In this document: positions 8,101-45,167 of the stretch, one piece after another
How the letters are laid out: each line of letters starts with the position of its first letter
How positions within the stretch are numbered: the stretch's first letter is position 1
DNA from: Alopecurus myosuroides
Lineage: Eukaryota > Streptophyta > Magnoliopsida > Poales > Poaceae
Reading direction: 5' to 3'
DNA length: 64,000 nt
Assembly (NCBI GenBank): GCA_028641055.1
Contig: CM054057.1
Location: 725,930,484-725,994,483, forward strand
Translations under genes and position numbers: made by a program
The notes under the pieces: generated by a model
Seen by the model: only the letters and a program-made list of their open reading frames with translations
Database searches by the model: none
Told to the model about the DNA's origin: nothing

Positions 8101-10550
8101 GGGAATCTATCCAAGAGGTAGGACCTAGCATTGTCTTGGGTGTTATTTTGTCAAAACATAACACAACCAAGCAATTGGTTCCGCTTTGCTACCCCCTTCC
8201 AGCTCACGTAGAGGGGCCAGAACGGCAGTTCCGTCTTTTCCAAGTGGGGCTATGGTTTCTCTGGAGAGGGGGCTCTGGATCGTCTGAATGCCACCAAATC
8301 CCATGGTATGCTATACCATGTGTGTTAGAGTGTGGCATGGGACTTTTATGCCCAATATTCCCTCTCTCTCTATGTTAGGGCTTCACCGGCGTCAGATTCT
8401 CTGGCGGGTTCGAGGACTACTTAGAGCCCGAAACTCCCGGATCTGACGGAACTGGGGGAATATTTCCAAGAGGTGGGCCCTACCATTTTCTTTGGTGTTC
8501 CTTGGGCCTAACATAATACAACCAAGCAGTTGGTTCCACTTGCTACCCCCTTCCTCTTAACGTAGAGGGGCCAGAACGTCAGTTCCATCTTTTTCCCCAG
8601 CGGGGCTATGGTTTCTCCGGAGAGGGGTCTCCAGATCGTCTCAATGCCACCAAATCCCATGGTATGTCATACCATGTGTGTTATAGTGTGTCATGGGTCT
8701 TGGATGCCCAAGATTCCCTCTCTCTCTGTGTTGGGCTTCACCGGCGTCGGAATCTCTCTTGCGGGTTCCAGGACTACTTAGATCCCGAACTTCCGAAACT
8801 GAAGGAACCCGGGGAATCTTGCCAACAGGTGGGACCAACCATTGTATTGGGTGATCCTTGGGCCTAACCTAATACAAAAAAGCAATTGGTTCCACTTTGC
8901 TACCCCTTTCCAGCTCACGTAGAGGGGCCAAAACGGCAGTTCCGTCTTTTTCCACATCGGGGCTATGGTTTCTCCGAAGAGGGGGCTCCGGATCGTCTGA
9001 ATGCCACCGAATCCCAAGTTATGCCACACCATGTGTGTTAGATTGTTTGATAGGTCTAAGATGGCAAACATTCCCTTGCTCTCTATGTTAGGGCTTCACC
9101 GGTGTCGGATTCTCTCTGCGGGTTCTAGGATTACTTAGAGCTCGAAACACCCGGTACTGGCGGAACTGGGGGAATCTTGCCAAATGGTGGGACCAACCAT
9201 TGTATTGGGTTTTCCTTGGGCCTAACCTAACACAACCAATCAATTGGTTCCACTTTGCTACCCCCTTCCGGCTCACGTCGAGGGGCCAGAACGACAGTTC
9301 CGTCTTTTTCCCCATCGGGGCTATGGTTTCTCCAGGGAGGGGGCTACGGATCGTATGAATGCCACCAAATCCCATGGTATGCCATATAATGTGTGTTATA
9401 GTGTGTCATGGGTCTTGGATTCCCAAGATTCCCTCGCTCCCAGTGTTAAGGATTCACCGGCGTCGGATTCTCTCTCGCGAGTTCGTGGACTACTTAGAGC
9501 CCGAAACTCCCGGATCTGACGGAACTGGGGGAATCTTGCAAAGAGGTAGGACATACCATTGTCTTAGGTGTTCATTGGGCCTAACCTAACACAATAAAGC
9601 AATTGGTTCCACTTTGCTACCCCCTCCGGCTCACGTAGAGGGGCCAGAACGGCAATTTCGTCTTTTCCCCAACGGGGCTATGGTTTCTCTGGAGAGGGGG
9701 CTCCGGATCATCTGAATGCCACGATATCCCAGCGTATGCCATACCATGTGTGTTAGAGTGTGTCATGGGTCTTGGATTCCCAATATTCCCTCGCTCTCTG
9801 TGTTAGGGCGCGCTTCACCGGCGTCATATTCTCTGCATGTTCGAGGACTACTTAGAGCATGAAACTCCCGGATCTGACGGAACTGCGGAAATCTTGCCAA
9901 GAGGTGGGCGCTACCATTGTCTTGGGTGTTCCTTGGACCTAACTTAACAAAACCAACAAACTGGTTCCAATTTTCTACCCCCTTCCGAGTCACATAGAGG
10001 GGCCAGAATGTCAGTTCTGTCTTTTCCCCCATCGGGGCTATGGTTTCTCCGGAGGGGGGCTCCGAATCGTCAGAATGGCACAAAATCTCATGGTATGCCA
10101 TACCGTGTGTGTTAGAGTTTGGCATGGGTCTTGTACGTCCAAGATTCCCTCTCTTTATTATGGCTTCACTGGCGTCAGATTTTCTCTAGCGGGTTCCAGT
10201 ACTATATTGAGAGCCCGAAATTCCCGGATATGACAGAACGGGGGAAATATTGCCAGGAAGTGGGACCTACCAATGTCTTGGGTGTTCCTTGGTCCTAACC
10301 TAACACAACAAAGCAATTAGTTCCACTTGGCTACCCCTTGCGTCTCATGTAGAGGGTCCAGAACGACAGTTCCGTCCTTTTTCTCCTGCGGGCTTAGGGT
10401 TTCTCCGGATAGGGGCTCAAGAGCGTCTAATCCCGCTCAAGCCTAGGGTATGCCATACCATGTGTGTTAGAGTGTGGAATGGTACAACAAATCAATGTTT
10501 GGCAAGTGGGGGCTTTGGAGTGTCAGAATCCTACGTAATCCATGGTGGAG
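5187..10550. repeat. Satellite-like tandem array A, about 15 monomers of about 358 bp
   Basis: A marker word (CATGGTATG or variant) recurs at 5432, 5794, 6150, 6510, 6873, 7232, 7590, 7944, 8302, 8658, 9015, 9373, 9730, 10089 and 10444. The spacing is 354-363 bp, mean about 358. Each monomer also contains TTCACCGGCGTC, GAAACTCCCGG, AATCTTGCCAAGAGG, CCTTGGGCCTAACC and GGGGCCAGAACGGCAGTTCC in the same order. Monomers differ by many substitutions and small indels, so the array is not young. Many monomers are open in one frame for 60-90 codons (for example ...GGFQDYLEPETPG...), which I take as chance. The left edge is cut by the LTR at 5186; the right edge fades into degenerate monomer sequence by about 10,550. 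I cannot name the family. Confidence 0.9.
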
Positions 10551-14649: not shown

Positions 14650-16690
14650 CCCACTCCTTGTGTTATGGCTTCACCGGCGTTAGAATTTCTATGGAGGGTT
14701 CCAGGACTACTTAGAGCCCAAAACTTCTGGATCCGGCTGAACGGGGGGAATCTTGCCAATAGGTGGGCCCTACCACTGTCTTGGGTGTTCCTTGGGCCTA
14801 ACATAACACAACCAAGCAATTGGTTCCACTTTGCTACCCCTTCCGTCTCACGTAGAGGGGCTAGAACGGCAATTCCTTCTTTTCCCCAACGGGGCTAGGA
14901 TTTCTCCGGAGAGGGGCTCCGGAGCGTCTGAATGCCACCAAGTCCCTTGGTATGTCATACCATGTGTGCTAGTGTGGAATGTGTCTTGTATTCCCAAGAT
15001 TCCCTCACTCCCTGTGTTATGGCTTCACCGGTGTCGGATTCTCTATGGCGGGTTCCATGACTTCTTAGAACCCGAAACTCCCGAATCTGGCAGACAGGGG
15101 GAATCTTGCCAATATGTGAGCCCTACCGCTGTCTTGGGTGTTCCTTGGGCCTAAACTGACACAATCAAGAAGTTGGTTCCCCTTTTCTACACCCTTCCGG
15201 CTCGCGTAGAGGGGCCAGAACGGCAGTTCCGTCTTTTTCCCCAACGGGGCTAGGGTTTCTCCGGAGAGGGGCCCCGGAGCGTCTGAATGCCACCAAGTCC
15301 CATGGTATGTCATACGATGTGTGCTAGAGTGTGTCATGTGTCTTGTATTCCCAAGATTCCCTCACTCCCTATGTTATGGCTTCACCGGCGTTGGATTCTC
15401 TATGGCGGGTTCCAGGACTACTTAGAGCCTGAAACTCCCGGATCTAGCGGAACGGGGGGAATCTTGCCAATAGGTGGGCCCTACCACTATCTTGGGTGTT
15501 CCTTGGGCCGAACCTAACACAACCAAGAAATTTGTTCCTCTTTGATGCCCTCTTCCGGCTCACGTAGAGGGGCTAGAACTGTAGTTTCGTCTTTTTCACC
15601 ATCTGGGCTAGGATTTCTCCGGAGAGGGGCTCCGGAGCGTTGAATTTCACCAAGTCACATGGTATGTCATATCATGTCTGCTACAGTGTGGCATGTGTCT
15701 TGAATTCCCAAGATTCCCTCACTCCCTATGTTATGCCTTCATCGGCGTCAGATTCTCTATGGCAGATTTTGGGATTACTTAAAGCCCAATACTCTCGGAT
15801 CTGGCGGAACGGGGGATCTTGCCAATAGGTGGGCCCTACCACTGTCTTGGGTGTTCCTTGGGCCTAACCTAACACAAACAAGCAATTCGTTCCGCTTTGC
15901 TACCCCCTTCCGACTCACGTAGAGGGGCCAGAACGATAGTTCCGTCTTTTTCCCGAGCGGGGCTAGGGTTTCTCCGGAGAGGGGCTCTCGAGCATCTGAA
16001 TGCAACCTAGGGCCATTGTATGCCATACCACGTGTGCTAGAGTGTGGCATGTGTCTTTTCTGTCAAGATTACCTCACTCCCTGTGTTATGGCTTCACCGG
16101 CGTCGGATTCTCTATGACGCATTCTAGGACTACTTAGAGCCCGAAATTCCCGGATCTAGCGGAACGGGGGGAATCTTGCCAATAGGTGGGCCCCACCAAT
16201 ATCTTGGGTGTTCCTTGGGCCTAACCTAACACAACCAAGCATTTGGTTCCACTTTGCTACCCCCTTCCGGTTCACGTAGAGGGGCCAGAACGTCAGTCCC
16301 GTCTTTTTCCCCATCGGGGCTAGGGTTTTTCCGGAGAGGGGCTCCGGAGTGTCTGAATGCCACCAAGTCCCATGGTATGCCATAACATGTGTTCTAGAGT
16401 GTGGCATGTGTCTTGTATGCCCAAGATTACCTCACTCCCTGTGTTATGGCTTCACCGGCGTTGGATTCTCTATGGCGGGTTCCAGAACTACTTAGAGCCC
16501 GAAACTCCCGGATCTGGCGGAACAGGGGGGTCTTTCCAATAGGTGGCCCTACCACTGTCTTGGGTGTTCCTTGGGCCTAACCTAACACAACAAATCAATT
16601 GGTTCCACTTTGCTACCCCTTTCCGTCTCACTGGCGTCGGATTCTATCTCGCGGGTTCCAGGAGAGGGGGCCTAGGGTGTCTCCAGAGAG
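14650..16690. repeat. Satellite-like tandem array B, about 5.7 monomers of about 357 bp
   Basis: Same monomer as array A, with markers at 14,946, 15,301, 15,658, 16,014 and 16,371 (spacing 355-357). The monomers form their own subtype: CACTCCCTGTGTTATGGCTT replaces the CTCGCTCTCTGTGTTAGGGC type of array A, and GGAGCGTCTGAATGCCACC is shared within the block. The last monomer is scrambled near 16,620-16,690. Confidence 0.9.
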
Positions 16691-25590: not shown

Positions 25591-26050
25591 CCTGCAGGAA
25601 GGTTAGAGTAGGTAGGTAGAATTCATGGGAGAGTGGTGAGTTTATATGTGTTTATGCCAATGGTGGCAATGCATACATATATATAGTGAGAATAAACAGA
25701 CCTTTTAGTCTCACTGGTAGAAAAAAGGCCTTCCATACGCCCCCTATAGTCTCCAAAATGTCCGAACCGTGACTAAAGAGGTCTTTAGTCGCGGTTCGGG
25801 AGGCGACCGCGACTGAAGGTCTTGAGTGGCGGTTTGGGAAGCGCGCGGAGGGCTTTAGTCCCAGTTGGCCTAGCCACCCGCGACTAAAGGTCCGAACTGC
25901 TCGCCTCCCGGTCTTTAGTCCCGGTTGGCCTGGCCACCCGCGACTAAAGTTCCGAACTGCTTGCCTCCCGCGCGGTTCTAATTCACGAGCGAGGCAGAAA
26001 GGCCTCATTGCTACAGTGCGCGCGCGGCTCTCTCTTCTTCTTCCTCCACC

Positions 26051-26775
26051 ATGGATTCTCCCGTTTTGAAGATTCTCCCGGTGGCCACACCATGCGGCAA
26101 GACTCTCCACGTCGCCTATACCAACAATTGTGAGATCCTCCCTGAAGCACTTGACCGTTTGAGGAAACTCTATGAAGCCGATGAACACCACAAGTTCTTT
26201 GGGCTAGATCTCGAGTACACGGCCAATCAAAAGGATGTGGCCGTCATCCAGATTGCTTACAAGGAAACCGTTCTGGTCTTCCAAAGGGCAAGGTACGCAC
26301 ACAATCTCTTGTAGGATAGTTGTTGCATTTTCGATTTGTTGTTGCATTGAAAGAATACACTTGTTGCAACAATATCTAACATGTGTTCCATTTTTGTTGT
26401 TGCAGTAGTGCAAAGAAATGTCCAGAACTTATGAATTTTCTTGTCAACAAACCTTTCGACTTTTGTAGCGTCGATATCACAAATGACCAGCAGAAGATGA
26501 TGTGCACCTGGAATATTGAGATACCTGAAGACCACTACATTGATCTTCAGGACTTGATCCATTTTGATGAGCTCGACGGGGACAAGATCGGGATGGCTCA
26601 GATGGAAACTGCCTTCATCCACCACGACTACAGAACGATGAAGACTAGTTTCCCCTCGAGAAATCACAACTATTGGGGGGAGAACCCACTTGACCTGATC
26701 AATCTCCAGTATGCAGCAATAGATGCATATGTTGCGTTCGAGTTGTTCCTCATCTACTCTTCAGAGCTCGAGTAG
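26051..26775 (+). CDS. DEDDy 3'-5' exonuclease (RNase D / Werner-exonuclease-like), two exons, inside a CACTA element
   Basis: Exon 1 is 26,051-26,292 and exon 2 is 26,406-26,775. The 113-bp phase-2 intron has good borders (CAAG|GTACGC and TTGTTGTTGCAG|T). The joined frame is open for 203 residues. The domain (DNA_pol_A_exo1 type) shows Exo I FGLDLEYTA (D53, E55), Exo II VDITNDQQK (D108) and Exo III YAAIDAYVAFELF (Y183, D187), so all DEDDy residues seem to be present. Such enzymes remove nucleotides from DNA or RNA 3' ends with two metal ions. Whether this one acts on DNA or RNA cannot be told. The ATG has good context (CCACCATGG) and lies 340 bp from the left terminus. The length suits a compact single-domain exonuclease. 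No helicase or HRDC domain is present. Confidence 0.75.
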
Positions 26776-27230
26776 ATGGTTGTTTGTGTACCGCTATGTT
26801 TGCATTATTCGAGACTTTATATATGTAGTACTACTTTTATGTACCGCTATGTTTGCATTATTCGAGACTTTATATATGTAGTACTACTATTATGTAATGG
26901 ATATATGTCCTATATTATTTCTATCAATTGTGTATGTGTTTAAGTATCGCTGTGCTTAAGACTAACTCCTTTGCAAAATATTTGAGAAAACGAGTGGAAA
27001 ACATGGAAAACAGAAGGTTACTTAAATGTCTCAAAACCTTGTGAGAGAAGAAGACTAATGAAATGGCTCAAATAAAACCAAGGGTTGAAAAGGACATGAT
27101 GCATTCATAAGGACTGGAAAATAGAAGAGATTTAGGAAAAGGGAAACAAAAGATTTCCTAGGATTAAGAGATATGACCAATTAATCAAGATGCATTCATA
27201 AGGACCGGAAAACAGTGAGATAAAATATTT

Positions 27231-27495
27231 TTCTGAATTTTTTGATATATTATTTGTATTTTTAAGATTTTAAAATGAATTCGTTTTATTTTTCTGAATT
27301 TTTTGATATATTATTTGTATTTTTTAGATTTTAAAATGAATTAGTTTTATTTTTCTGAATTTTTTGATATATTATTTGTATTTTAAAGATTGTAAAATGA
27401 ATTAGTTTTATTTTTCTGAATTTTTTAATATATTATTTGTATTTTTAAGATTTTAAAATGAATTAGTTTTATTTTTCTGAATTTTTTTTAGAAAT
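27231..27495. repeat. Tandem repeat, 61-bp unit, just over four copies
   Basis: TTCTGAATTTTTTGATATAT starts units at 27,231, 27,292, 27,353, 27,414 and 27,475, exactly 61 bp apart. The copies differ at only a few positions. Very AT-rich. Confidence 0.9.
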
Positions 27496-27667
27496 AATAC
27501 AAATTAAAAGTTAATGTTTATTTATTTATTCAAAATTATTATTACATCATTACTTTTGTTTATTAAAAGATTTATTTGAAATTCAAACAATAAACAAATG
27601 TGGCATCGTCCAACATGTTAATAGGATTGATATGATACTAGTATCACATACATGCGTGCGAAACACT

Positions 27668-27757
27668 TGGATGCGGGACGGGATAGAACTCGGAAGTTAA
27701 GCTTGCTAGTGCTAGAGTAGTGGGAGGATGGGTGACCGAGCGGGAAATTTGACCACG
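27668..27757 (+). repeat. 5S rRNA-derived fragment inside the CACTA element
   Basis: GGATGCG, AGAACTC, GAAGTTAAGC, TGCT, GAGTAGT and GGATGGGTGACC occur in the order and approximate spacing of the plant 5S rRNA gene, covering the internal control region (A box and C box). Several positions are changed and the ends are not conserved, so it is not a functional 5S gene. It could have come from a 5S-derived SINE, a Cassandra-type LTR or 5S DNA directly. Confidence 0.65.
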
Positions 27758-28072
27758 AGTAAGTAATTTGACTAGAGATAATTTTAGTTAGACACTAAGC
27801 AAATAATAAAAATTCTGAAAAAAGGGAGCGAAAAATAATTAGAAACCCAAATGAATTAAAAAAAAAAGAAATAGCCTTTAGTCCCGGTTCGTGTTACAAA
27901 CCGGGACTAAAGGTCGGCGCACGCCAGCCACCCACGTGGACGGGCCTTTAGTCGCGGTTCGTAAGAGGCGCGACTAAAGGGGGGCCTTTAGTCGCGCATA
28001 TTTAGTCCCGGTTGCACGGCCGGGATTAATGGTCTTTGCAAACCGGGACTAAAGGCCTATTTCCTACCAGTG

Positions 28073-31252: not shown

Positions 31253-34200
31253 ATGGACGACTCGAGCATGTTCATGCAGTGGGCCATGGAGACGCTGCAG
31301 CACGAGAGCCCGCCGGCTGCCGCTCCCTGCGCCGTCCTGCAAGAGCTGCTACCGAACGGCACGGCTCCTGCGAGAGCGGCAGCCGCAGCCGCACAAGATC
31401 GCGCCACATATTGTGGTAGCTCAGGCGTCGGCGGTCGTGAGAACACGCTGGGCGGCTGGCCATCCAGCTACCAACCCGTGGCCTGCCACTCCGCTACCAC
31501 CATGACGCAGCCGACCATACACGACGAGGCCACGCCCACCGCTCCCGCAGGACAGGCGGACGTGCCGGAACTGAAACAGGCGCCGGAGCAGTGCGTGCAG
31601 GACCACGTCATAGCGGAGCGGAAGCGCCGCGAGAAGATCAACCGGAGCATGATCGAGCTCTCCACCGTCATCCCGGGCATCAAGAAGGTCCCCATTCCTA
31701 CATTTCTCACCCCATCTCGTGTCGCCTCCACCAATGTTTTAAATAGCGGGTTAAAAGATTTAGCGGCAACCTACGGAAAAAGTTATAGCGATGTTATATC
31801 GCCGCTATAGCGCGCTATTTACGGGTTTTGATACCTTTAGCGCGCTAATGCACTTAGCGGCATAGTGTTGAAAATTCTATAGCGTCCCTATAGCGACTAG
31901 ATCACGCTATTTTAAACTTTGGCCTCCAATCAACTCTTCTTACGAGAAAACTTCCGCTAATTAAACTCATTGACCAATTTGTTCAGATGAACAAGGCCAC
32001 GATCCTGTCTGCTGCTGTGAGGTACGTGAAGGAGCAGCAGGAGAAGATCAAGGAACTCGAGGGGCGCAATGTGCGGAGCGTAGACTCGGTTGTGCTTCTC
32101 AAGAGACCGGATGCCACGGTGACAACAGGGAGCCCGCTGCCGGAAATCCATGTGAGGATCTCGGAGAGCAACGTCATAATGACGATCCGTTGCAAAGACG
32201 GGAAGGGCGTGCTTGTAAGGCTGCTCGCCGAGGTCGAGGGGCTTCACCTTACCATCACACACACCATTTTTATCCCCTTCCCGGCGTGCACTATGAATAT
32301 AACCATCACGGCAAAGGCAAGTTCATTACTCCTTGATTTTTTGCTTCTGGGCACATTTTGTTATTTATGTTTATAGGTGACATTTTGGTATAATTTCCAA
32401 CATGAAACAATATTGACTACTCCAACCGGTCCAACCAAAGGGCCATCCGTAATGGGAAACGGTTCTACCGTTTCTAATACTATTACATGTCATTAGCTCA
32501 TGCACAATCTCCGATCCATCGTTTCCTTCCTTGGTTTCTATATGCTACTCGCATTTATTTATTTTTGGGCCCATTCCATCTTCTCAAGTTGGCAGGATTG
32601 CTCTTGCATGGTTGACCGTCCCTAGGTGCAATCCAACAACACGTCTCTTTCCTTTTGCTCTCACATGTGCACATGCAAATGAGACTATGGGCAGAGCCAT
32701 CCACATGCAGCAATAACCCCCCTCTTCTCCTGGTCTCTCTTTCCTTTCCTTGATACAGATATGAAAGTAGTTAAGCTTAAACTTGCATTAGAACGCAGCA
32801 TAAATGGAAATAATATGCCAGAATATTTACCTGACCTATGGTCACCCGCAAGCTAGCCTTACCCGCTAATTAGCCTCATTAAGCTGCCAGAGGAAGTAAT
32901 TGTCGAAACACTTTGCATGCTCTCTCAAGAGCCGTAGCCAAAATAACAAACGGCTCTACTCATTTATCTGATTAATTAGCCTTTCATGTAGGCAAAAATT
33001 CTGCGTGGATCTCTAAGAATCTGCCATAAATTTTAAGATAAAATAAGTCTACAACCTATAATAAATAAATATTTACATGATAGCACTGACTACGAGGCTG
33101 GTCATAGTAGAGAGTAACATGGAGTCACTAGTCTATGTTACTATATCCATAGTGGGAAGTAACACAGAAGTGGTGTCATATAAAAGTGTATTTATTATCT
33201 TAAAAACTCATATTGTATAGAAAGGTATGATATCCCTAGGTCGCTAATTTTCCCAACAAAATATAACTTATATAGATGCACATAAGGATATAATTAATCA
33301 TTAGGTCTTCCTGCTTGGGCTTCATGGTACCATTTTTGGAAAATTTAAATACAATACCTTCAAATTATTAAAATAAAATCTAGATGTACATAATGATGAA
33401 CCTCCTAGCGTGCAAGAAAAGAAATGCAAAATAATTTGTTACCTGGGCTATGTAAAAATAATAAAATTATGGTTATGAGGTAGCGAATGGTGCAAATTTT
33501 AAACTTTGTCAGGTTACTTTATCTAGTCCAAAATAAAATATACATATATTTCTAATAGTGATTTTACATGTTTGTATTATACATCAAACGTTTTCACTAT
33601 TACGTTGTGATATTAAAACCTTCAAACATTGGCAGACATTCCACCTACGAATTTACATTTCAAAAAATAACATCTTTATCTTGTGTAAAAAAAATCAAAG
33701 AAATGTCTTGTGAAAAATCTACCATAATTATTTTTCGTTTCATACAAAGGAAATTTTTTTTTTTTGGCAAAACTTTATGCCACACACGTAAAATACGAAG
33801 ATGTACATGTGAATTTTACTTTCATATTTTAGAACTTTAAACATATTTCAAAAACCTTTTTCCGCAAACAAACACCTACAAAAAATATGGTGGAGCCAAA
33901 AAAATGTTTTTTAAGGACCTCTCCAAAATAGGAGGAAATGCGTAAACATATATGTGGTACACTTTTTCACACAATAGACTATAAAAGTATGGCCGATTCG
34001 AAATATATAAACTCATTTTCGTTTACGCCACTACATTAAAAAATATTCAAGTATAGTACACATGTTAAAAAATGTTCGGTAAATTGTTTTCAAGTAATAG
34101 TGATTTAAACGGAGGACCTTGCTTGTGTCAGTCAGCTAGACGCCACGAAGGGGTAGGCGTGCATCGATTGCTTCTGACAGGTGCAGTCTGTTGGGTCCCT

Positions 34201-36175: not shown

Positions 36176-36696
36176 GAAGCAACAAGGAGCTCATGTGTCT
36201 CATGTCAAAGTTCAAGAGAAAACTTGTTTTTGCCATCTCAATAAGTTATGGAAACCACTAGGCTTTCTATCTATCTAGTCCCCATCTGTGATCTCGATTT
36301 TCTCTAGAGCATGAGATCGCTGAGTAAAACATTGGACTGATAGTTATTACTTCAGTAAATCGTGTTGAATTGTAGGACCTGGATGTGCAATCTTACCGAT
36401 GGGACTCTATTCGCACAGATCATCACGCTTGGTGCATGGAACCTATAGAAGCGGTGTAATATATATATATTGGTTTGATAAGTTTCCCTTTAGCAGACAG
36501 TTCAGGATGTGCAATCTCACGGAGGATCTCAAGAAACTACAGTTAGGGTGCGTATCTAGAGAACCAAGACTGCCTAATAATTTTATTTAAATTGTGCACT
36601 TGTAATTTCTTTTTCTCCCTGGTCTAGGTATGAATTGTAAATTGTTATTCTTGATCGTTTTTTAATATACCCACCACGAGCCACTCATGTGCTACT
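36176..36696 (+). other. 3' flank of the bHLH gene
   Basis: Likely 3' UTR and downstream DNA between the stop codon and the CACTA element. No poly(A) signal is certain. No gene seen. Confidence 0.5.
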
Positions 36697-36966
36697 CACT
36701 AGTGGAAACAACCCCTCTCGTCCAGGGGGCCGGGGGGCAGCTGTCCCGGTTGCAACCAAATCCGGGACAAATGCCCTGCATTGGTCCCGGTTCGTGCGCC
36801 CGGGGCAACAGGAATCGCCTGGGCGCATTGGTCCCGGTTCGTGGGGGCATATCCGTCCCGGCTCGTGCCACGGACCGGGACCAATGCCTAGCCACAGGCC
36901 ACGTGGCACGCGCATGACCTGTTGTCCCGGTTCAGTCCACGAACCGGGACCAATGCCCCCTTCCCC

Positions 36967-36974
36967 TATATATA
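36967..36974 (+). promoter_or_regulatory. TATA box of the CACTA transposase gene
   Basis: TATATATA in CCCCTATATATACTGCC, 282 bp before the transposase ATG and directly after the left subterminal repeats. A leader intron probably ends at TATATGATGCAG just before the ATG. Confidence 0.55.
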
Positions 36975-37248
36975 CTGCCCCAGCCCCCCCCCCCTCCTTC
37001 CATCTTTTTTTTTGCTTGGAGGTGTGAGAGAGTGTGGTGTTGCTGTTTTTTTTTTTTTACTATGCACACGAGGTGTTCGACGAAATTCCCGAGACGCACA
37101 CAAGCTCACTGAAAATGGTTTCTTCGACCGAGGTTAACAAATTATCTTTTTCATCTGTAACTGATACATAAAAAAGTATTATTTGTCGATGTACTGTGGT
37201 TATCTCTGTATTAATATGTATTTTGATAAACTTAATTATATGATGCAG

Positions 37249-40200
37249 ATGGATGCACGGCAGCGATGGATGTACGGTGACCGACGCACCTCCGAGTATA
37301 TGGCAGGCCTGAATGCATTTCTTGCTGTAGCTCAGGCGAACAAAGATAATGGCTTCATGTGTTGCCCATGTGTTGATTGTCGGAACGTCAGAGAACATTC
37401 TTCCGAAAGAATCCTTCACGGCCATCTACTTCGGAGAGGTTTCATGCCCAGCTATAATTGCTGGACCAAGCATGGAGAAAGAGGGGTTGTGATGGAAGAC
37501 GATGAAGAAGAAGAAGAAGATCCTTTGTTCCCTGAATACGATACTGCAATGGAAGAGAATGCAGAAGAAGGAGGTGATCAAGAACAGGCATCAGAAGAGC
37601 CCGATGATGATCTTGGCCGAGTTATTGCTGATGCAAGGGAAGACTGTGAAAATAGATTGGAGAGGTTGAAACTGGACAACATGTTACAGGATCACAAAAA
37701 ATTGTTATACCCAAATTGCGAAGATGGTAGCACAAAGCTCGGTACCACACTGGAGTTGCTGAAATGGAAGGCACAAAACGGTGTGACTGACAAGGCATTT
37801 GAGACTTTACTTCAACTAATGAAGCCAAAACTTCCAAAGGATAACGAATTGCCTGAGAGTACGTACGAAGCAAAGAAAGCTCTCTGCCCTCTAGGATTAG
37901 ATGTGCAGAAGATACATGCATGCATTAATGACTGCATTCTCTTCCGCGGTGAGAAGTACGAGAATTTGGATGAATGTCCGATATGCACTGCACTGCGGTA
38001 TAAGATCAGAGCAGATGATCCTGGTGATGTTGACGGCGAGCCTCCCCGTAAGAGGGTTCCTGCTAAGGTGATGTGGTATGCTCCTATAATACCACGGCTG
38101 AAACGTCTGTTTAGAAACAAAGAGCATGCTAGGTTGTTGCGATGGCACAAAGAAGACCGTAAGAAAGATGGAAAGTTGAGGCACCCCGCCGATGGATCGC
38201 AGTGGAGAAAGATCGAGAGAGACTTTCCAGACTTTGCAGGAGAGGCGAGAAACTTATGGTTTGGTCTAAGTACAGATGGCTTTAATCCTTTTGGGGAGCA
38301 GAGCTCCAGTCATAGCACTTGGCCTGTAACTCTATGTATGTACAACCTTCCTCCTTGGTTGTGCATGAAGCGCAAGTTCATTATGATGCCAGTTCTCATC
38401 CAAGGCCCGAGGCAACCTGGCAACGACATTGATGTGTATCTAAGGCCATTAGTGGAAGAACTCTTAGAACTGTGGGCAAACCAGGTGTACGTGTGTGGGA
38501 TGAGAACGAACAAAAGCCATTTGACCTACGGGCGTTGCTTTTCGTGACCATCAATGATTGGCCAGCTCTTAGTAACATTTCCGGTCATACAAACAAGGGA
38601 TACAATGCATGCACACACTGTTTAGATAAGACTGACAGTGTTTTTTTGGATAAATGTAAAAAGGTTGTATACCTGGGGCATCGTAGATTTCTTCCGATCA
38701 AGCATCCCTTAAGGAAAAAAGGAGGGAAGCATTTCAGAGGTGAGGCAGATAACCGAAAGAAGCCTGAGCTCCGTAGTGGTAATGATATATTCGATATGGT
38801 CAAGGACCTAGAAGTAATCTTTGGTAAGGCTGCTGGCAGCCAACCAGTTCCGTACGGCCCTGATAAGCGGGCACCCATGTGGAAGAAGAAATCTATATTT
38901 TGGGAGCTACCCTATTGGAAAGTTTTAGATGTCCGGTCTTCGATCGACGTGATGCACGTGACAAAGAATCTATGTGTCAATCTGCTATGCTTCCTGGGCG
39001 TGTATGGGAAGTCAAAAGATACGCCTGAAGCACGGGAGGACCAGCAACGTATGAAAGACCCAAGCAACAAGCACACAGATACAGGGCGCCATTCCTTAAG
39101 CAGCTACGCTCTTACTAAAGCAGAGAAGGAAATATTCTTTGAAGTCCTTTACAGTATCAAGGTTCCGTCTGGCTTCTCGTCGAATATAAAGGGGATAATA
39201 AACATGGCAGAGAAAAAATTCCAAAACCTGAAGTCTCATGACTGCCACGTGATTATGACGCAATTGCTTCCGATTGCATTGAGGGGGCTTCTACCGGAAA
39301 ATGTTCGAGTACCCATTGTGAAGCTATGTGCATTCATGAACGCAATATCTCAGAAGGTAATCGATCCAGAAAGTCTGACAAGATTACAGAGGGATGTGGT
39401 CCAGTGTCTTGTTAGTTTTGAGTTGGTGTTCCCACCATCCTTCTTCAACATTATGACTCATCCTGGTTCACCTATGTGAAGAGATTCATATTCTTGGTCC
39501 GGTATTTCTACACAATATGTTCCCCTTTGAGAGGTTCATGGGAGTCTTGAAGAAATATGTTCATAACCGTGCTAGGCCAGAAGGAAGCATCTCGAAGGGC
39601 TATGGAACAGAGGAGGTCATTGGGTTCTGTGTTGACTTTATTCCTGACCTTAAGACAATTGGTGTTCCTGAATCGCGGCATGAGGGGAGACTGAGGGGAA
39701 AAGGAACGCTGGGAAAGAAAACAATGATACCTAGGGACGAGCATTCTTTGACCAAAGCACACTACACAGTTCTACAAAATTCTATGTTCATGGCTACGTA
39801 TGTCGAGGAACACAAGAATATTGTACGGTCTGCAAACCCGGGAAGGATGACTCATGGATTAAACGCGAACACATGGAGACTTTCGGAAGTTGGTTGCAAA
39901 CACGTCTTATAAATGACACCACTGTTGAAGATCAGCTATACATGTTGGCAGGGTCACCATCTTCGACTATTGGGAGTTTTCAAGGGTACGAGATAAATGG
40001 AAATACATTTTACACGAGCTCCCAAGATAAGAAGAGCACCAACCAAAACAGTGGTGTCCGCTTTGATACAACAAACGAGAATGGAAAAACTGACACATAC
40101 TATGGTTACATAGAGGAGATATGGGAACTTGACTATGGACCTTTTTTTAAGGTCCCTTTGTTCAAGTGCAAATGGGTCAACCTGAATGGAGAAGGGGTAA

Positions 40201-40541
40201 AGGTAGACCCGCTTTATGGAATGACAACAGTGGATCTCAACTGTATTGGTTACAATGACGAACCATTCGTTCTAGCCAATGATGTGGCTCAGGTCTTCTA
40301 TGTGAAGGACATGTCTTCCAGACCGAAGAAAAGAAAAAATAAGGGAACAATTTCATCATACGATGAGCCGAAGCGTCACATAGTTCTCTCAGGGAAAAGA
40401 AACATTGTGGGAATCGAGGACACGACAGACATGGAAGATTATAATAAGTTTGTTGAAATTCCACCCTTCACAGTGAAATCTGACCCTACCATCCCGTTAA
40501 ATAATGAAGATGCTCCATGGTTACGGCCGAAGCGATCATAA
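37249..40541 (+). pseudogene. CACTA transposase (TNP2/TNPD type), three frameshifts
   Basis: It starts at 37,249 (MDARQRWMYGDRRTSEYM) with the N-terminal transposase-associated domain (CCPCVDC; SYNCWTKHGE), then an acidic linker. The central Transposase_21 region has CPLGLDVQKIHACINDCILF, GLSTDGFNPFG, PWLCMKRKFIMMPVLIQGP, VTINDWPALSNISGHTNKGY and DVMHVTKNLCVNLLCFLG. The DUF4218-type part has NMFPFERFMGVLKKYVHNRA, and the DUF4216-type C-terminus has YYGYIEEIWELDYGPFFKVP, ending at 40,541. The frame changes near 38,475, 39,465 and 39,852, each probably a single-base indel. All domains are otherwise present and well kept, so loss of function looks recent. The intact family enzyme binds element ends and cuts and joins DNA. 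Confidence 0.85.
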
Positions 40542-40734
40542 GCAAGGGACACGAAGAAAATTCAGAAGACTAGATAGGGATGTTGTTGGTGATGTGTAAT
40601 AATAAACGTGGAATACATGATCATAGTTCTTATAACGTAGTATGAACGAGATTTTGTTAACCAAAATGATATTTATACATATTATGTGATTATGAATGGA
40701 GTAGGTGCAAGTTTGACCAATAATTTGTATTGAT

Positions 40735-41475
40735 CGGTGTTGAAGAACATGTTTCCCAATGGTGTTAATGTGGTGTCCTTATTCTCCGGTATTGGAGGAG
40801 GAGATAGCTTTGCACAGGCTTTGCATCCACATGAAGACAGTGATTTCAGTTGAGATAGGTGAAGTTAATATGAGGATTTTGAGGAGTTGGTGGGATCAGA
40901 CACAAACTGGCACTTTAATTGAGATTGCCGACGTGAAGTCTCTCACTAATGATAGCGTACACGGAATGCAATTCATTCCAAATTGATACTGTGGGTTGCC
41001 ACTTGTCGGTGTTGAAGAACATGTTTCCCAATGGTGTTAATGTGGTGTCCTTATTCTCCGGTATTGGAGGAGGAGAGATAGCTTTGCACAGGCTTTGCAT
41101 CCACATGAAGACAGTGATTTCAGTTGAGATAGGTGAAGTTAATAGGAGGATTTTGAGGAGTTGGTGGGATCAGACACAAACTGGCACTTTAATTGAGATT
41201 GCCGACGTGAAGTCTCTCACTAATGATAGCGTACACGGAATGCAATTCATTCCAAATTGATACTGTGGGTTGCCACTTGTCGGTGTTGAAGAACATGTTT
41301 CCCAATGGTGTTAATGTGGTGTCCTTATTCTCCGGTATTGGAGGAGAGATAGCTTTGCACAGGCTTGGCATCCACATGAAGACAGTGATTTCAGTTGAGA
41401 TAGGTGAAGTTAATAGGAGGATTTTGAGGGGTTGGTGGGATCAGACACAAACTGGCACTTAATTGAGATTGCCGA
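40735..41475 (+). pseudogene. Three tandem copies of a DRM-type DNA (cytosine-5) methyltransferase fragment
   Basis: Units of 272 and 274 bp start near 40,735, 41,007 and 41,281; the third is cut at about 41,475. Translated, a unit reads ECNSFQIDTVGCHLSVLKNM, FPNGVNVVSLFSGIGGGEIA, LHRLCIHMKTVISVEIGEVN, RRILRSWWDQTQTGTLIEIA and DVKSLTND. This matches the plant DRM2 segment around motif X (NSFQVDTV.YHLSVL) and the SAM-binding motif I (SLF.GIGGGEVALHRL), in the rearranged order unique to DRM proteins. The catalytic PC motif and the UBA domains are absent, so no active enzyme can be made. Copy 1 lacks two bases after GGAGGAGGAGA (frameshift) and copy 3 lacks three. The copies are otherwise almost identical. 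They lie in sense orientation downstream of the transposase gene. Confidence 0.8.
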
Positions 41476-41640
41476 GACAGATATTGCAGGATTATAACTA
41501 CTTTCGAGATGTAGTATGTGTTGACACACGGTATAGAACAAGTGATTATGGCAGGCCTCTATTGTTATTCATTGGAGTTAATCACCATAAACAACCCAAA
41601 AAAGTTTTGACTGGCTGCTTTACATCGATAGGGGATGCAG
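41476..41640 (+). pseudogene. FAR1/FHY3-like (MULE transposase domain) fragment fused to the DRM repeats
   Basis: Translated it gives LQDYNYFRDVVCVDTRYRTS, then DYGRPLLLFIGVNHHKQ. This matches the opening of the MULE-type domain of FAR1/FHY3 proteins (DYxxFGDVVxFDTTYRTNxYxxPFxxFVGVNHHxQ). The conserved Asp of the domain (VDTRYRT) is kept. Similarity ends soon after HHKQPKK. It directly follows the truncated third DRM copy, so two unrelated captured pieces are joined. It could come from a host FAR1-related gene or a MULE transposon. Confidence 0.7.
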
Positions 41641-41688
41641 TTGCTGCTTGGCCAGGGACTGTCCACCGCTCGGATATATATCTGTCAA

Positions 41689-42370
41689 CGTCAGTCCTGG
41701 CTGCTTGTTCATCCTCTAGAGTCTGCTCTGCTCTGCTCTACTGCTCGTTGCGGCTCAGGTTGGTAACGGTCCATGTTTGCGTATGCTTTGTGAACTTATG
41801 GTTTGATTTGAGAATTTCAAAACTTTGATTTGATAATCTTTTGGCCGGAAGCACCTAGCAATATCTTTTAAACCTTGTTTCTCTCCATATGCTATTTGTA
41901 CTTCTCATCGGCTGTAATGTTTCTCTACCTGATTCTACTTCTCCTCTGCCTAGTTTACAGATGTTTGCTCTTTTCTGTAGATGTTTCTACACTGTAAAAT
42001 GGACATGTCCTGCGAAACATGCAGACAAGGCGCTGATCACCACTACTGGGACATGCCCATTTTACAGTGTAGAAACATCTACAGAAAAGAGCAAACATCT
42101 GTAAACTAGGCAGAGGAGAAGTAGAATCAGGTAGAGAAACATTAGAGCCGATGAGAAGTACAAATAGCATAGGGAGAGAAACAAGGTTTAAAAGATATTG
42201 CTAGGTGCTTCCGGCCAAAAAATTATCAAATCAAAGTTTTGAAATTCTCAAATCAAACCATAAGTTCACAAAGCATACGCAAACATGGACCGTTACCAAC
42301 CTGAGCCGCAAGGAGCAGTAGAGCAGAGCAGAGCAGACTGTAGAGGATGGACAAGCAGCCAGGACTGACA
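41689..42370. repeat. Long inverted repeat: arms about 322 bp, loop 37 bp
   Basis: The left arm (41,689-42,010) and right arm (42,048-42,370) are inverted copies with only scattered differences. Examples are CACTGTAAAATGGACATGTC against GACATGCCCATTTTACAGTG at the centre, and GTCAGTCCTGGCTGCTTG against CAAGCAGCCAGGACTGAC at the outer ends. A transcript through it would fold into a near-perfect stem of about 320 bp, a typical Dicer-like substrate. It lies just after the DRM and FAR1-like fragments, but its arms show no similarity to them that I can see. Confidence 0.9.
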
Positions 42371-42379
42371 TCGACTCTA

Positions 42380-43130
42380 GAGGATGAACAAGCCACCCTA
42401 CTTCTACTATGAAAATGAGGCCCTAGCTCCAAAAAGTGTATGGGTGGAAATTTCCAGAAATTTGTATGACACAGAGCCGCTTTATAATTTGAATATAAAT
42501 TTCCATAATTTATATTCAAATTATATACAAATGAAAAAATAATTAATAGTTTCAATAGTTAGAATAATTATTTAGTTAAACGAAAAATGGATATAAATTA
42601 GTTTTGCAAATTCTAGCATTTTTTATGTTGGAATTTTTGTCAAATTTGGAAGTATATAAAAGTTAATGTGCAAACTTAACACTTTTCAAATTTTGGCGCT
42701 AAAAAATTTTGGGCGCGAGGTGCCACCGAAATTCGAAATTTGTTTTTGGTCCCGGGCCGTGGTACCAACCGGGACCAAAGGGCTCTCGTCCCGGTTGGTG
42801 GCACGGGCCGGGACTAAAGGCCCAAGTGTATAAAAAAGCGCGGCCCTCTCTCCAGCCCGAGCGGACACCCCAGGGGCGGGCACGAGTGAATGGCTGGGCG
42901 AAGCCCTGCCGGCGGCGGGAACGAGTGGACAGATTCGCCGGCGGAACGCCGGCGGGGATGGACTAGGGGCACAGTAGATTAGGGGAACACAACTTATATT
43001 AAAATAGGGCCAGGGGCCTTGCTTACATAGGGGCGCGCGCACAGGCGGCCGGCCGTACTTGCATAAGGGCGGCGGCGCGGCCACAGGCGGGCCGGCCGTT
43101 TCTTGGGGGGTAGCTAGCTAGGGGCGTTGT
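42380..43130. other. Internal CACTA DNA with a second subterminal-type block
   Basis: 42,480-42,700 is AT-rich and featureless. At 42,745-42,825 subterminal-type words occur in inverted pairs (GGTACCAACCGGGACCAAAG, GTCCCGGTTGGTGGCAC). TATAAAAA at 42,829-42,836 follows, then a GC-rich stretch with no gene. This may be an old internal duplication of an element end, or the remains of a nested element. Confidence 0.5.
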
Positions 43131-44204
43131 CTATAGATAATAGGGGGGCGGCGGTGACCTAGTCGTCCTCGTCGTCGGAGAGGTGTACATACGCGGGTGC
43201 CTGCCACAGGTGGGCAGGCAGCTGGGCCGGGCTCGCCGGGGGGGGCATCGGGGCGCGTACGGCGGCGGCGGGGGCAGTACCTCCTGTGGCAGCGGCGGCG
43301 GCGGGGGCAGCTCCTCCTCCTGCTCCGGCGACCCCGGCGCCCAAACGCTGCCGGTCCAGGCCCAGGTCATGCCATACTCCAGGCCTGGTGGGAGCGGCTG
43401 CGGCTCCGGCATGTCCTCGGACGCCTCCAGCTCGGCGTTCATGGCCTGCCACCAGGGGATGGCAGGCTCGTTAGGGGGTGGCGGCGGCGGTGGCATGGCA
43501 GCGGCGTCGGCGGCGGCGGCGGCCACGACACGATGCCACCTCTTGATCTCGTCGTCGACGAGGGAGCGGCGGGAGCGCTCGCAGGCCTCCTCCAGTTGGG
43601 CCCGGAGCTCGGGGTCCGGCTCCCCGGAGAAGTCCTCCGGCTCGTCCACGAGGAGCCATAGCTCCCTCTCCCGGCCGGGCGCTGGCGGGGGGTAGTCGTC
43701 CACGTTGGCCTCGAGGGGGCGGGGATGAAGGAGCGGCGGCGCTGCTCGTGCTCCTGCTCGAGCCAGGCGGCCCAGTAGGGAGCTGCGCGCGTACATCCGC
43801 TCCCTGCGGACGGGGGCCGGCAGGAGCTCGCGGCGGCGCTCGATCTCCTCGAGCAGCGCCGCGCCGGTCGGGGCCGGCGGCACTGGGATCCGCTGGGGAT
43901 TCAGGTGCCAGCCGTCGGGGAGGTGCACGTCGTTGTAGAACACCGGAGTGGCATTGTTCCAGTGCCACTCCGCCTCGTCCACCCGGACGTACCGGCGGAA
44001 CCGCTTGCCCGGGGGCGCGGCGCGGGGCGGCGGGCGTGCAGCCGGTGGTGGCGCGGGGACGCGTGGCACCCCGCCGAGGCGGACACCTCCAGGGCCGTAG
44101 CCGAAGGCCTCCGCCGGCGGGGGCGGGATGCGGCCTGCGCCGCTCGACGAGCCTCCGTCGTCGTTCCTTGGGCGCTTGCCGGAGTTCGAGAACCAGCGGG
44201 ACAT
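43131..44204 (-). CDS. Transposon-borne Pro/Ala/Arg-rich protein of unknown function (antisense gene of the CACTA element)
   Basis: I chose the start at 44,204 (MSRWFSNSGKRPRNDDGG), because the upstream 47 codons lack family character. The protein has about 357 residues: a basic, Pro-rich N-terminus, the core EAEWHWNNATPVFYNDVHLP, DGWHLNPQRIPVPPAPTG, then Arg/Glu-rich helices (ALLEEIERRRELLPAPVRRE), EIKRWHRVVAAAAADAAAM, and poly-Pro stretches. A neighbouring frame ends QAPAYVHLSDDEDD, which looks like the original C-terminus. A one-base shift near 43,255 therefore probably altered the tail. It is related to the broken gene at 25,087-25,590. I recall such proteins as common in Triticeae CACTA-type repeats; no enzymatic motif is visible. 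GC content is far above the AT-rich DNA to its left. Confidence 0.5.
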   Translation of the reverse strand: MSRWFSNSGKRPRNDDGGSSSGAGRIPPPPAEAFGYGPGGVRLGGVPRVPAPPPAARPPPRAAPPGKRFRRYVRVDEAEWHWNNATPVFYNDVHLPDGWHLNPQRIPVPPAPTGAALLEEIERRRELLPAPVRRERMYARSSLLGRLARAGARAAPPLLHPRPLEANVDDYPPPAPGRERELWLLVDEPEDFSGEPDPELRAQLEEACERSRRSLVDDEIKRWHRVVAAAAADAAAMPPPPPPPNEPAIPWWQAMNAELEASEDMPEPQPLPPGLEYGMTWAWTGSVWAPGSPEQEEELPPPPPLPQEVLPPPPPYAPRCPPRRARPSCLPTCGRHPRMYTSPTTRTTRSPPPPYYL

Positions 44205-44759
44205 GGTGGCGGCTAGGGTTGCTTTGCCAGGGACGCGTCCGGGGTGGGTGGGTTGTACGGGCGGCGGGGGGCCTTTAAAAAGGACCCGGGCTGGGCTGGC
44301 ATGCCAACCGGCGGCCTGAACGTGGCGGCGGTTGCAGGCGGCCATGAATGCGGGGAGCCGAGGCGTGGCGCGTGGGGAGTGGGGCGTGGGAAGCCGAGGC
44401 GGGAAGACGAGCGGGAAGAGGCGGAAGACGAGGCGGACAGCCCTTTGACCGTCCTTCGTCTTAGTTTAATGGACCAGGCGAACCAGCCACCAGGCCGCTG
44501 GCCAGTGGCCCCTGTTGACTGGCCATAATAACAGGCGCGGGCCAGTGGGCCCTTCGAACCGTTGACTGTCCATAAATAAAAGACGCGGGCCAGTGGGCCT
44601 TTTTGACTAAAAAATGTGTCCGTGGGCTTAATTAAAGACGTGGGCCTGGAGCGGTTGGGGAAGGGGAGGCCGGTTGGCGATTGCGAGGCAGGAGAAAAAA
44701 AAACGAACAAAAAAAACCTGCCGCGGCAGGGAAAATGGGCGGACTTTATTCATTTTTTA

Positions 44760-44974
44760 AGAAGGCATCCATCCCGGTCCCTAAAACGAACCGGGACGAA
44801 CTCCCTCGCGGTCCCTGGCCCAGAGTCGCCACGTGGGCCAGCCTTACCATCCCGGGTGCTGGCACAACCGGGACCAATGGGGAGGGCCATTTGTCCCGGC
44901 TAGCCCATCCCGGTTGCGCAACCGGGACAAATGGCCCTTACGACCCGGGACAAAAGGCCCTGTTTCCACTAGTG
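44760..44974. repeat. Right subterminal repeats and terminus of the CACTA element
   Basis: Inverted units such as CATCCCGGT...GAACCGGGACGAAC and TTGTCCCGGCTAG...CAACCGGGACAAATGG, ending GGCCCTGTTTCCACTAGTG. Confidence 0.8.
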
Positions 44975-45167
44975 ACTAGTTACAAATATCTCTTCTAAAG
45001 TTACGCAGATAGGTGAGACTTGCGAATTATGTTAATTCCGTGCTTGTGTTTAGATTAGTAACATAATTTTATATACAATAACTATGAAATAGCACGTAAA
45101 TTTTGAGAGAAAAATAGCAGTTGACCATGATAACTAAACTATATTTAGTCGCAAAGTCATTTTGGCT

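What the first reader, a model, noticed from the sequence alone, without database searches (positions are those of the whole stretch)
40735..41475. CACTA transposon carries three tandem copies of a host DRM methyltransferase fragment
Seen: three near-identical units of about 272 bp encode the DRM-specific order NSFQ.DTV..HLSVL then SLFSGIGGGEIALHRL, in a complete CACTA element with a target duplication. Known: DRM2 is the plant de novo DNA methyltransferase that silences transposons, and rice miR820, made from CACTA elements, targets OsDRM2. Inference: this may be an independent capture of DRM sequence giving small RNAs, a target mimic or an RNA that lowers DRM expression. Threefold amplification of just this exon-sized part suggests selection or repeated slippage.
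Basis: partly seen in the sequence, partly recalled or inferred. Interest (0 to 1): 0.88.

Follow-up and report, generated by a model that had tools for sequence, protein, structure and literature searches.

The report
Jumping gene carrying DNA-methylation gene pieces
A young, numerous grass transposon picked up part of a plant gene that helps silence transposons and repeated one piece of it in tandem; whether this cargo helps the transposon or is just baggage is open, but can now be tested.

Summary
In detail: window 36697-44974 is a CACTA element with a 3-bp target duplication, and 40734-41475 holds 2.7 units of 274 bp encoding DRM2-type methyltransferase sequence. Whole-genome searches change the reading. 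The window type is one of 203 places by its left junction. Unit number varies: 1, 2, 3 or 4 units in 3, 16, 15 and 6 of 40 sampled copies, 5 in another. The unit-unit junction occurs 1,721 times, some in arrays of about 12. Sister copies carry one longer capture of the same DRM exon (770 bp); three of four checked keep a 273-codon frame that ends before the catalytic PC motif, and the fourth, broken, lacks that motif. The unit includes a few bases of the capture's flank, so it multiplied inside the transposon. The nearest of 11 host DRM-like exons is 83-86% identical; exact runs of 26-36 nt are shared with three. The large hairpin beside the units carries no DRM sequence, so a miR820-like hairpin route is not supported. 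Best reading: passenger cargo of a young CACTA burst, tandem by slippage or unequal exchange. RNA or decoy effects on DRM remain untested. The host is probably blackgrass, not a Triticeae species.

The parts
36697..44974 (+). complete CACTA element, 8278 bp, ends CACTAGTGGAAACA
   Evidence: ends read; another copy 99.1% identical over 8324 aligned bases
36694..36696 (.). target site duplication ACT, left
44975..44977 (.). target site duplication ACT, right
37183..40541 (+). Tnp2-type transposase region, broken into several frames in this copy
   Evidence: frames; Transposase_21 E 2.8e-50 and 1.9e-30
40734..40959 (+). DRM unit 1, positions 47-274
   Evidence: left edge is a TCGGT junction
40960..41233 (+). 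DRM unit 2, complete, 274 bp
41234..41475 (+). DRM unit 3, positions 1-246
41476..41683 (+). fragment with weak MULE transposase similarity
   Evidence: E 1.4e-4, 22.6 bits, below the cut-off of 27.6
41684..42010 (+). 5' arm of inverted repeat, 327 nt
   Evidence: fold -610.2 kcal/mol, z -45.6, 0 of 20 shuffles as stable
42049..42375 (-). 3' arm of inverted repeat, 97% complementary, 38-nt loop between
42392..42478 (+). second DRM piece, PPYFYYENEALAPKSVW.., from the 5' part of the same exon
   Evidence: 81.6% to L039; 74% at protein level
43131..44345 (-). opposite-strand proline-rich open frame of the element
   Evidence: no Pfam match

Best explanation
A CACTA family captured one stretch of a host DRM2-type catalytic-domain exon (shown). 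In some members a 274-bp segment, from NSFQ to a few bases beyond the end of the capture, duplicated in tandem inside the element (shown by the junctions) and grew to about 12 units in some copies. A derivative type lost the left part of the capture by a deletion between two TCGGT sites, has a large inverted repeat, and is found at 203 places, with 1-5 units in the copies read (structure shown, order of events inferred). The DRM pieces most likely are passenger cargo: no catalytic motif in the copies checked, mostly amino-acid-changing differences, unstable unit number (inferred). Any effect on host DRM through small RNAs would be a by-product (inferred).
For: Left junction 203 places, control 0. 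Unit numbers 1-4 in 40 sampled copies and 5 in one full copy. Unit-unit junction 1,721, control 0. A long array in the same CACTA. Single 770-bp capture in L103 whose right flank TACACGGAA is part of the repeated unit. TCGGT junction. DRM-less relatives L101 and L102. Units no less variable than neighbouring segments. Private changes of the capture 22 amino-acid-changing to 3 silent, against 101 to 56 in five paralogs, p 0.02; 13 to 2 among three open copies.
Against: Three of four full captures checked keep a 273-codon frame without stops, which pure decay need not give. Pairwise dN/dS of the capture against host exons is 0.11-0.47, though much of that divergence may predate the capture. 22:3 does not differ significantly from a neutral 3:1 (p 0.17), so it shows lack of constraint, not its cause. 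Exact runs of 26-36 nt to host DRM exons would allow small-RNA action. The same host gene was captured by rice CACTA elements.
Confidence: 0.68

Rival explanations
1. RNA-based counter-defence: read-through transcripts contain sense DRM units and then the large hairpin; dicing of the hairpin with spread into the units, or antisense transcription from the opposite-strand gene, makes DRM-matching small RNAs that lower host DRM expression or methylate its exon.
For: Units lie 192 nt behind the transposase frame and directly before the hairpin on the same strand. Exact 21-mers: 14 of 254 windows of unit 2 match L039, 6 match L038. Hairpin loop 32-mer at 540 places. Precedent in rice miR820.
Against: The hairpin has no DRM sequence. 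Units are in direct, not inverted, order. A possible AATAAA lies before the units at about 40600 (read). The long-array copy whose two ends were read has no hairpin in those ends. More hairpin loops (540) than unit left junctions (203) were found, and one hairpin copy (L096) has no units. No RNA data.
Confidence: 0.16
2. Protein decoy: the single-capture copies encode a 273-residue DRM2-like fragment without the catalytic motif that competes with host DRM2 for partners, substrate or cofactor. The tandem forms are broken leftovers.
For: ATG-started frame open in 3 of 4 copies checked; it aligns to DRM structures over residues 4-261, E 7.6e-115. The frame ends before the PC motif, and L107 lacks that motif by a net 48-bp gap. 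A 32-mer from the middle of the capture occurs at 248 places.
Against: No sign of constraint in the changes. N-terminal domains of DRM are absent. The window type has lost the frame. No expression data. Only four copies read, and for L105 and L106 only about 29 bp beyond the frame's end.
Confidence: 0.1
3. The 274-bp repeat is an independent host satellite made from DRM, and the CACTA picked up a slice of it.
For: 1,721 unit junctions, many more than the 203 window-type places can be expected to hold.
Against: All three long arrays checked at their left edge sit in the same CACTA family. A single, non-tandem capture with the same right flank exists. Host DRM stretches show at most one DNA match to the unit each.
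Confidence: 0.04

Closest known systems
miR820-carrying CACTA elements of rice (PMC3459959; parts 1-3 of 5 read)
   Same: CACTA superfamily; carries sequence from the host DRM2 gene; rise in copy number with near-identical copies (at least 18 in the BB genome)
   Different: Rice: exon 2-intron 3 of OsDRM2 forms a miRNA precursor with shown cleavage of OsDRM2. Here: catalytic-domain exon, direct tandem units, a hairpin without DRM sequence, 203 window-type places, no RNA evidence
CACTA gene captures of wheat chromosome 3B (PMC4290129; passages)
   Same: Host gene fragments inside CACTA elements; 140 capture events reported there
   Different: No tandem growth or DRM capture seen in the passages read
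Pack-CACTA / Pack-TYPE elements (PMC8903248; passages)
   Same: Coding DNA between transposon ends, often from more than one locus
   Different: Pack-TYPE elements are non-autonomous; here the element carries transposase sequence
Anti-silencing proteins of VANDAL elements (passages of PMC13317346; the name VANC is recalled)
   Same: A transposon product counters host DNA methylation, as the decoy rival would
   Different: No such gene was identified here, and any anti-silencing effect is untested

Membership tests
CACTA superfamily | CACTA terminal inverted repeats | tested here: met
   CACTAGTGGAAACA at both ends
CACTA superfamily | 3-bp target site duplication | tested here: met
   ACT here; TTG, TAC, GTC in three other copies
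CACTA superfamily | Tnp2-type transposase | tested here: met
   Transposase_21 E 2.8e-50 and 1.9e-30; one of three other full copies has one uninterrupted 1128-codon frame
CACTA superfamily | subterminal repeats | not tested
   Repeated CCGGTT/GGGAC motifs seen by eye near both ends only
miR820 system | lies inside a CACTA element | tested here: met
miR820 system | hairpin derived from DRM2 | tested here: not met
   inverted repeat has no DRM match; longest exact run 10-13 nt
miR820 system | 22/24-nt RNAs and cleavage of DRM2 mRNA | not testable with these tools
   no small-RNA or degradome data
DRM-type methyltransferase | rearranged motif order, NSFQ block before the FxGIGG block | tested here: met
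DRM-type methyltransferase | catalytic PC motif | tested here: not met
   units end before it; L103, L105, L106 frames end before it; L107 lacks it by a net 48-bp gap
Pack-CACTA | captured host coding DNA between the ends | tested here: met
Pack-CACTA | non-autonomous, without transposase | tested here: not met
   transposase domains present

The most novel reading that the evidence does not exclude
In a grass lineage separate from rice, a CACTA family independently took a DRM gene, a writer of its own silencing, without the catalytic motif, and uses it against DRM as an inactive decoy frame or as a source of DRM-matching small RNAs; the arrays raise the dose of that RNA. This would be convergent capture of the same defence gene by the same transposon superfamily.
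Probability: 0.15. Interest if true: 0.88.

Novelty: new variant of a known kind. Interest (0 to 1): 0.6.

Why it matters
CACTA elements seem to have captured a DRM gene at least twice, in rice (miR820) and here. If the second capture also touches DRM, taking parts of the silencing machinery would look like a repeated transposon strategy rather than one rice case. If it does not, this family is a good negative control: hundreds of DRM-bearing places with no effect. The series of forms (no DRM, single capture, long array, short array with hairpin) in one genome makes the question directly testable with small-RNA and methylation data. A gene-derived 274-bp tandem repeat with 1,721 junctions also shows how far a captured exon piece can multiply.

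Tried and rejected
Hairpin as a DRM-derived precursor: rejected, no DRM sequence. Rfam match of the hairpin to mir-4716 (42.4 bits, gathering score 76): below the curated score, put down to hairpin shape. Host satellite as source: unlikely. Lower variation of the 5' than the 3' arm as a sign of selection: polymorphic sites 8 against 23 of 327 in 42 copies each (p 0.009), but singletons 5 against 11 (p 0.20), and part of the sample was picked by unit similarity; left open. Donor of the inverted repeat: not found; the 40 candidates scored of 739 show hits of 96% or more, all as paired arms, which I read as transposon copies. Literature: the only DRM capture by a CACTA that I saw was miR820, in the listings; 'drm' and 'methyltransferase' occur 0 times in the main texts of PMC13317346 and PMC8903248. 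Only this library was searched.

Dropped or uneven rows: one search scored 40 of 335 candidates and one search scored 40 of 739, so both lean to the nearest copies. The 40 copies used for unit counts were chosen by me from the places that one search lists (only the first ones of 203, contigs C1-C3), leaving out those found; they are not a random draw. The script counted L083 as 4; I recounted it as 3 because one unit is split by a deletion. L085 has only 44 bp of a third unit (counted 3) and shows no MULE piece or arm in its stretch; L086 has a shortened second unit and no MULE match; L060 lacks the 5' arm. In one search segments shorter than 90% were left out. L043 and L047 did not enter the dN/dS table and L040 pairs were skipped. 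L047 not in the tree. L044 dropped for stops, L043, L046, L047 not entered, L040 and L045 left out of the private-site count.

Full report
What is there. The window lies on contig C1 (781.7 Mb) of a 3.57-Gb assembly. Size and large contigs fit Alopecurus myosuroides: 3,572,044,634 bp in PMC10108218 and 3,529,081,863 bp with a largest chromosome of 807 Mb in PMC10120058 (passages). Element 36697-44974 has CACTA ends and an ACT duplication. It carries a Tnp2 transposase in broken frames, the DRM array 40734-41475, a weak MULE-like fragment, an inverted repeat with 327-nt arms, a second DRM piece at 42392-42478 and an opposite-strand proline-rich frame.

The DRM identity. The unit's protein matches Arabidopsis DRM2 in PDB at E 2.8e-35. 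A DRM2 C-terminal peptide finds 11 DRM-like exons in the genome, all 117 candidates being scored. Seven have long open exons of 385-421 codons; L043, L044, L046 and L047 look broken or partial. The unit is closest to L039, 86.2% over 261 bp without gaps. A tree of the unit with 10 of the 11 groups it with L039, L043 and L044, with weak support (59), on a branch of 0.087. It differs from L039 at 37 of 261 sites (majority form), while the host exons compared differ from each other at 41-100 sites. The direct donor is thus a lost or unsampled paralog or an ancestor of L039 (inference). Longest exact shared runs are 29 nt with L039, 26 with L038 and 36 between unit 3 and L041.

A numerous, young family. 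The transposon-unit left junction occurs at 203 places with up to 2 mismatches, control 0. In one search all 23 distinct loci (the window itself is one) have transposase-side sequence, units, MULE piece and inverted repeat in this order; in L014 only one arm was matched, in L018, L020, L022 and L031 the MULE piece is shortened, and L015 is cut by the end of its stretch. In one search the 20 further copies agree, except that L060 lacks the 5' arm and most of the MULE piece. In one search, of 20 more, L085 shows neither MULE piece nor arm and L086 no MULE match. Diversity between copies is 0.0022-0.0100 by segment (31-43 copies each). At 7e-9 (rate in a legend of PMC10120058) or 1.3e-8 per site per year (recalled) this is roughly 0.1-0.7 million years.

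Three is not special. In 40 sampled copies the unit numbers are 1 in 3, 2 in 16, 3 in 15 and 4 in 6 (recounted). One full-length copy has 5. Single-unit copies run from position 47 to 246, as expected if a two-unit array collapses by recombination (inference).

How the array arose. The unit-unit junction occurs 1,721 times, control 0. One long array spans C1:16971806-16975028, about 11.8 units by its two ends; the middle was not fetched. Its transposase end is 98.8% identical to the window's. It begins with a longer DRM leader in which L039 positions 722-866 and 1108-1474 are fused in frame. Two other long arrays start at other unit positions in the same family. The transposon sequence next to the array, without the window-type deletion, occurs at 1,372 places, control 0. 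Of three such places read, L101 and L102 show no DRM in 1.5 kb, and L103 has one contiguous 770-bp capture, 82.9% to L039, directly followed by TACACGGAAGTTACTATG. The unit junction reads TACACGGAA joined to the unit start. So the repeated unit includes flank of the capture, and the duplication happened inside the element. The window type's left edge is a deletion between two TCGGT sites.

The full capture. A 32-mer from its middle occurs at 248 places, control 0. L103, L105 and L106 have a stop-free 273-codon frame that starts with ATG; L107 is broken by deletions. The frames end before the catalytic motif; for L105 and L106 only about 29 bp beyond the frame were read. L107 reaches further into DRM and lacks the SPCNN stretch through a net 48-bp gap relative to L039. 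The L103 frame aligns to DRM structures over residues 4-261. At sites where five host paralogs agree, L103 has 22 amino-acid-changing and 3 silent private changes, against 101 and 56 summed over those paralogs (p 0.02; not different from a neutral 3:1, p 0.17). Three open copies differ at 13 changing and 2 silent sites. This fits loss of constraint but cannot separate changes made in the donor gene; pairwise dN/dS to host exons is 0.11-0.47.

The hairpin. Its fold is extreme. Its loop 32-mer occurs at 540 places, control 0, more than the 203 unit junctions, so hairpin copies without that junction exist; one, L096, has lost the units. The 5' arm plus loop is 365/365 identical in the 40 best of 739 candidates. 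It shares no run above 13 nt with the 14 DRM stretches held. A direct miR820-like route is therefore not supported; spread of small RNAs from hairpin to units is possible and untested. L103 has arm sequence without the inverted partner.

Verdict. The biology is larger and different: one DRM exon capture in a young CACTA family, its decay, and tandem growth of one piece. The most likely state is passenger cargo (0.68); an anti-DRM RNA (0.16) or a decoy protein (0.10) stay open. These odds are my judgement.

Noticed in passing
window 41684-42375: The 5' arm varies less between copies than the 3' arm (8 against 23 polymorphic sites of 327). Loop and arm read MDMSCETCRQGADHHYWDMP, which by recall resembles the start of grass B3-domain proteins; the donor gene was not found.
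   Followed up: partly
L107+L108 (C2:58787540-58788780): A capture that reaches further into DRM and lacks just the catalytic SPCNN stretch by a net 48-bp, in-frame gap relative to L039; one copy only.
   Followed up: partly
L037-L047: Eleven DRM2-like exons in one genome, seven with long open frames, some close together on C1 (772.48 and 772.53 Mb) and C2 (570.91 and 571.40 Mb).
   Followed up: partly
L096 (C2:162575910): Deletion derivative of the same CACTA: element positions 1-742 joined to about 4879, hairpin kept, DRM units lost.
   Followed up: no
window 25712-28072: Two CACTGGTAG..-type ends facing each other, perhaps a second, short CACTA-like element (6 matches in the window against 2.15 expected).
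   Followed up: no
window 5189-10482 and 14652-16631: Two long tandem arrays of about 357-359 bp with a shared consensus core.
   Followed up: no
window 31253-31810: Open frame with VIAERKRREKINRSMIELSTVIPGIKK, which by recall resembles a bHLH domain.
   Followed up: no
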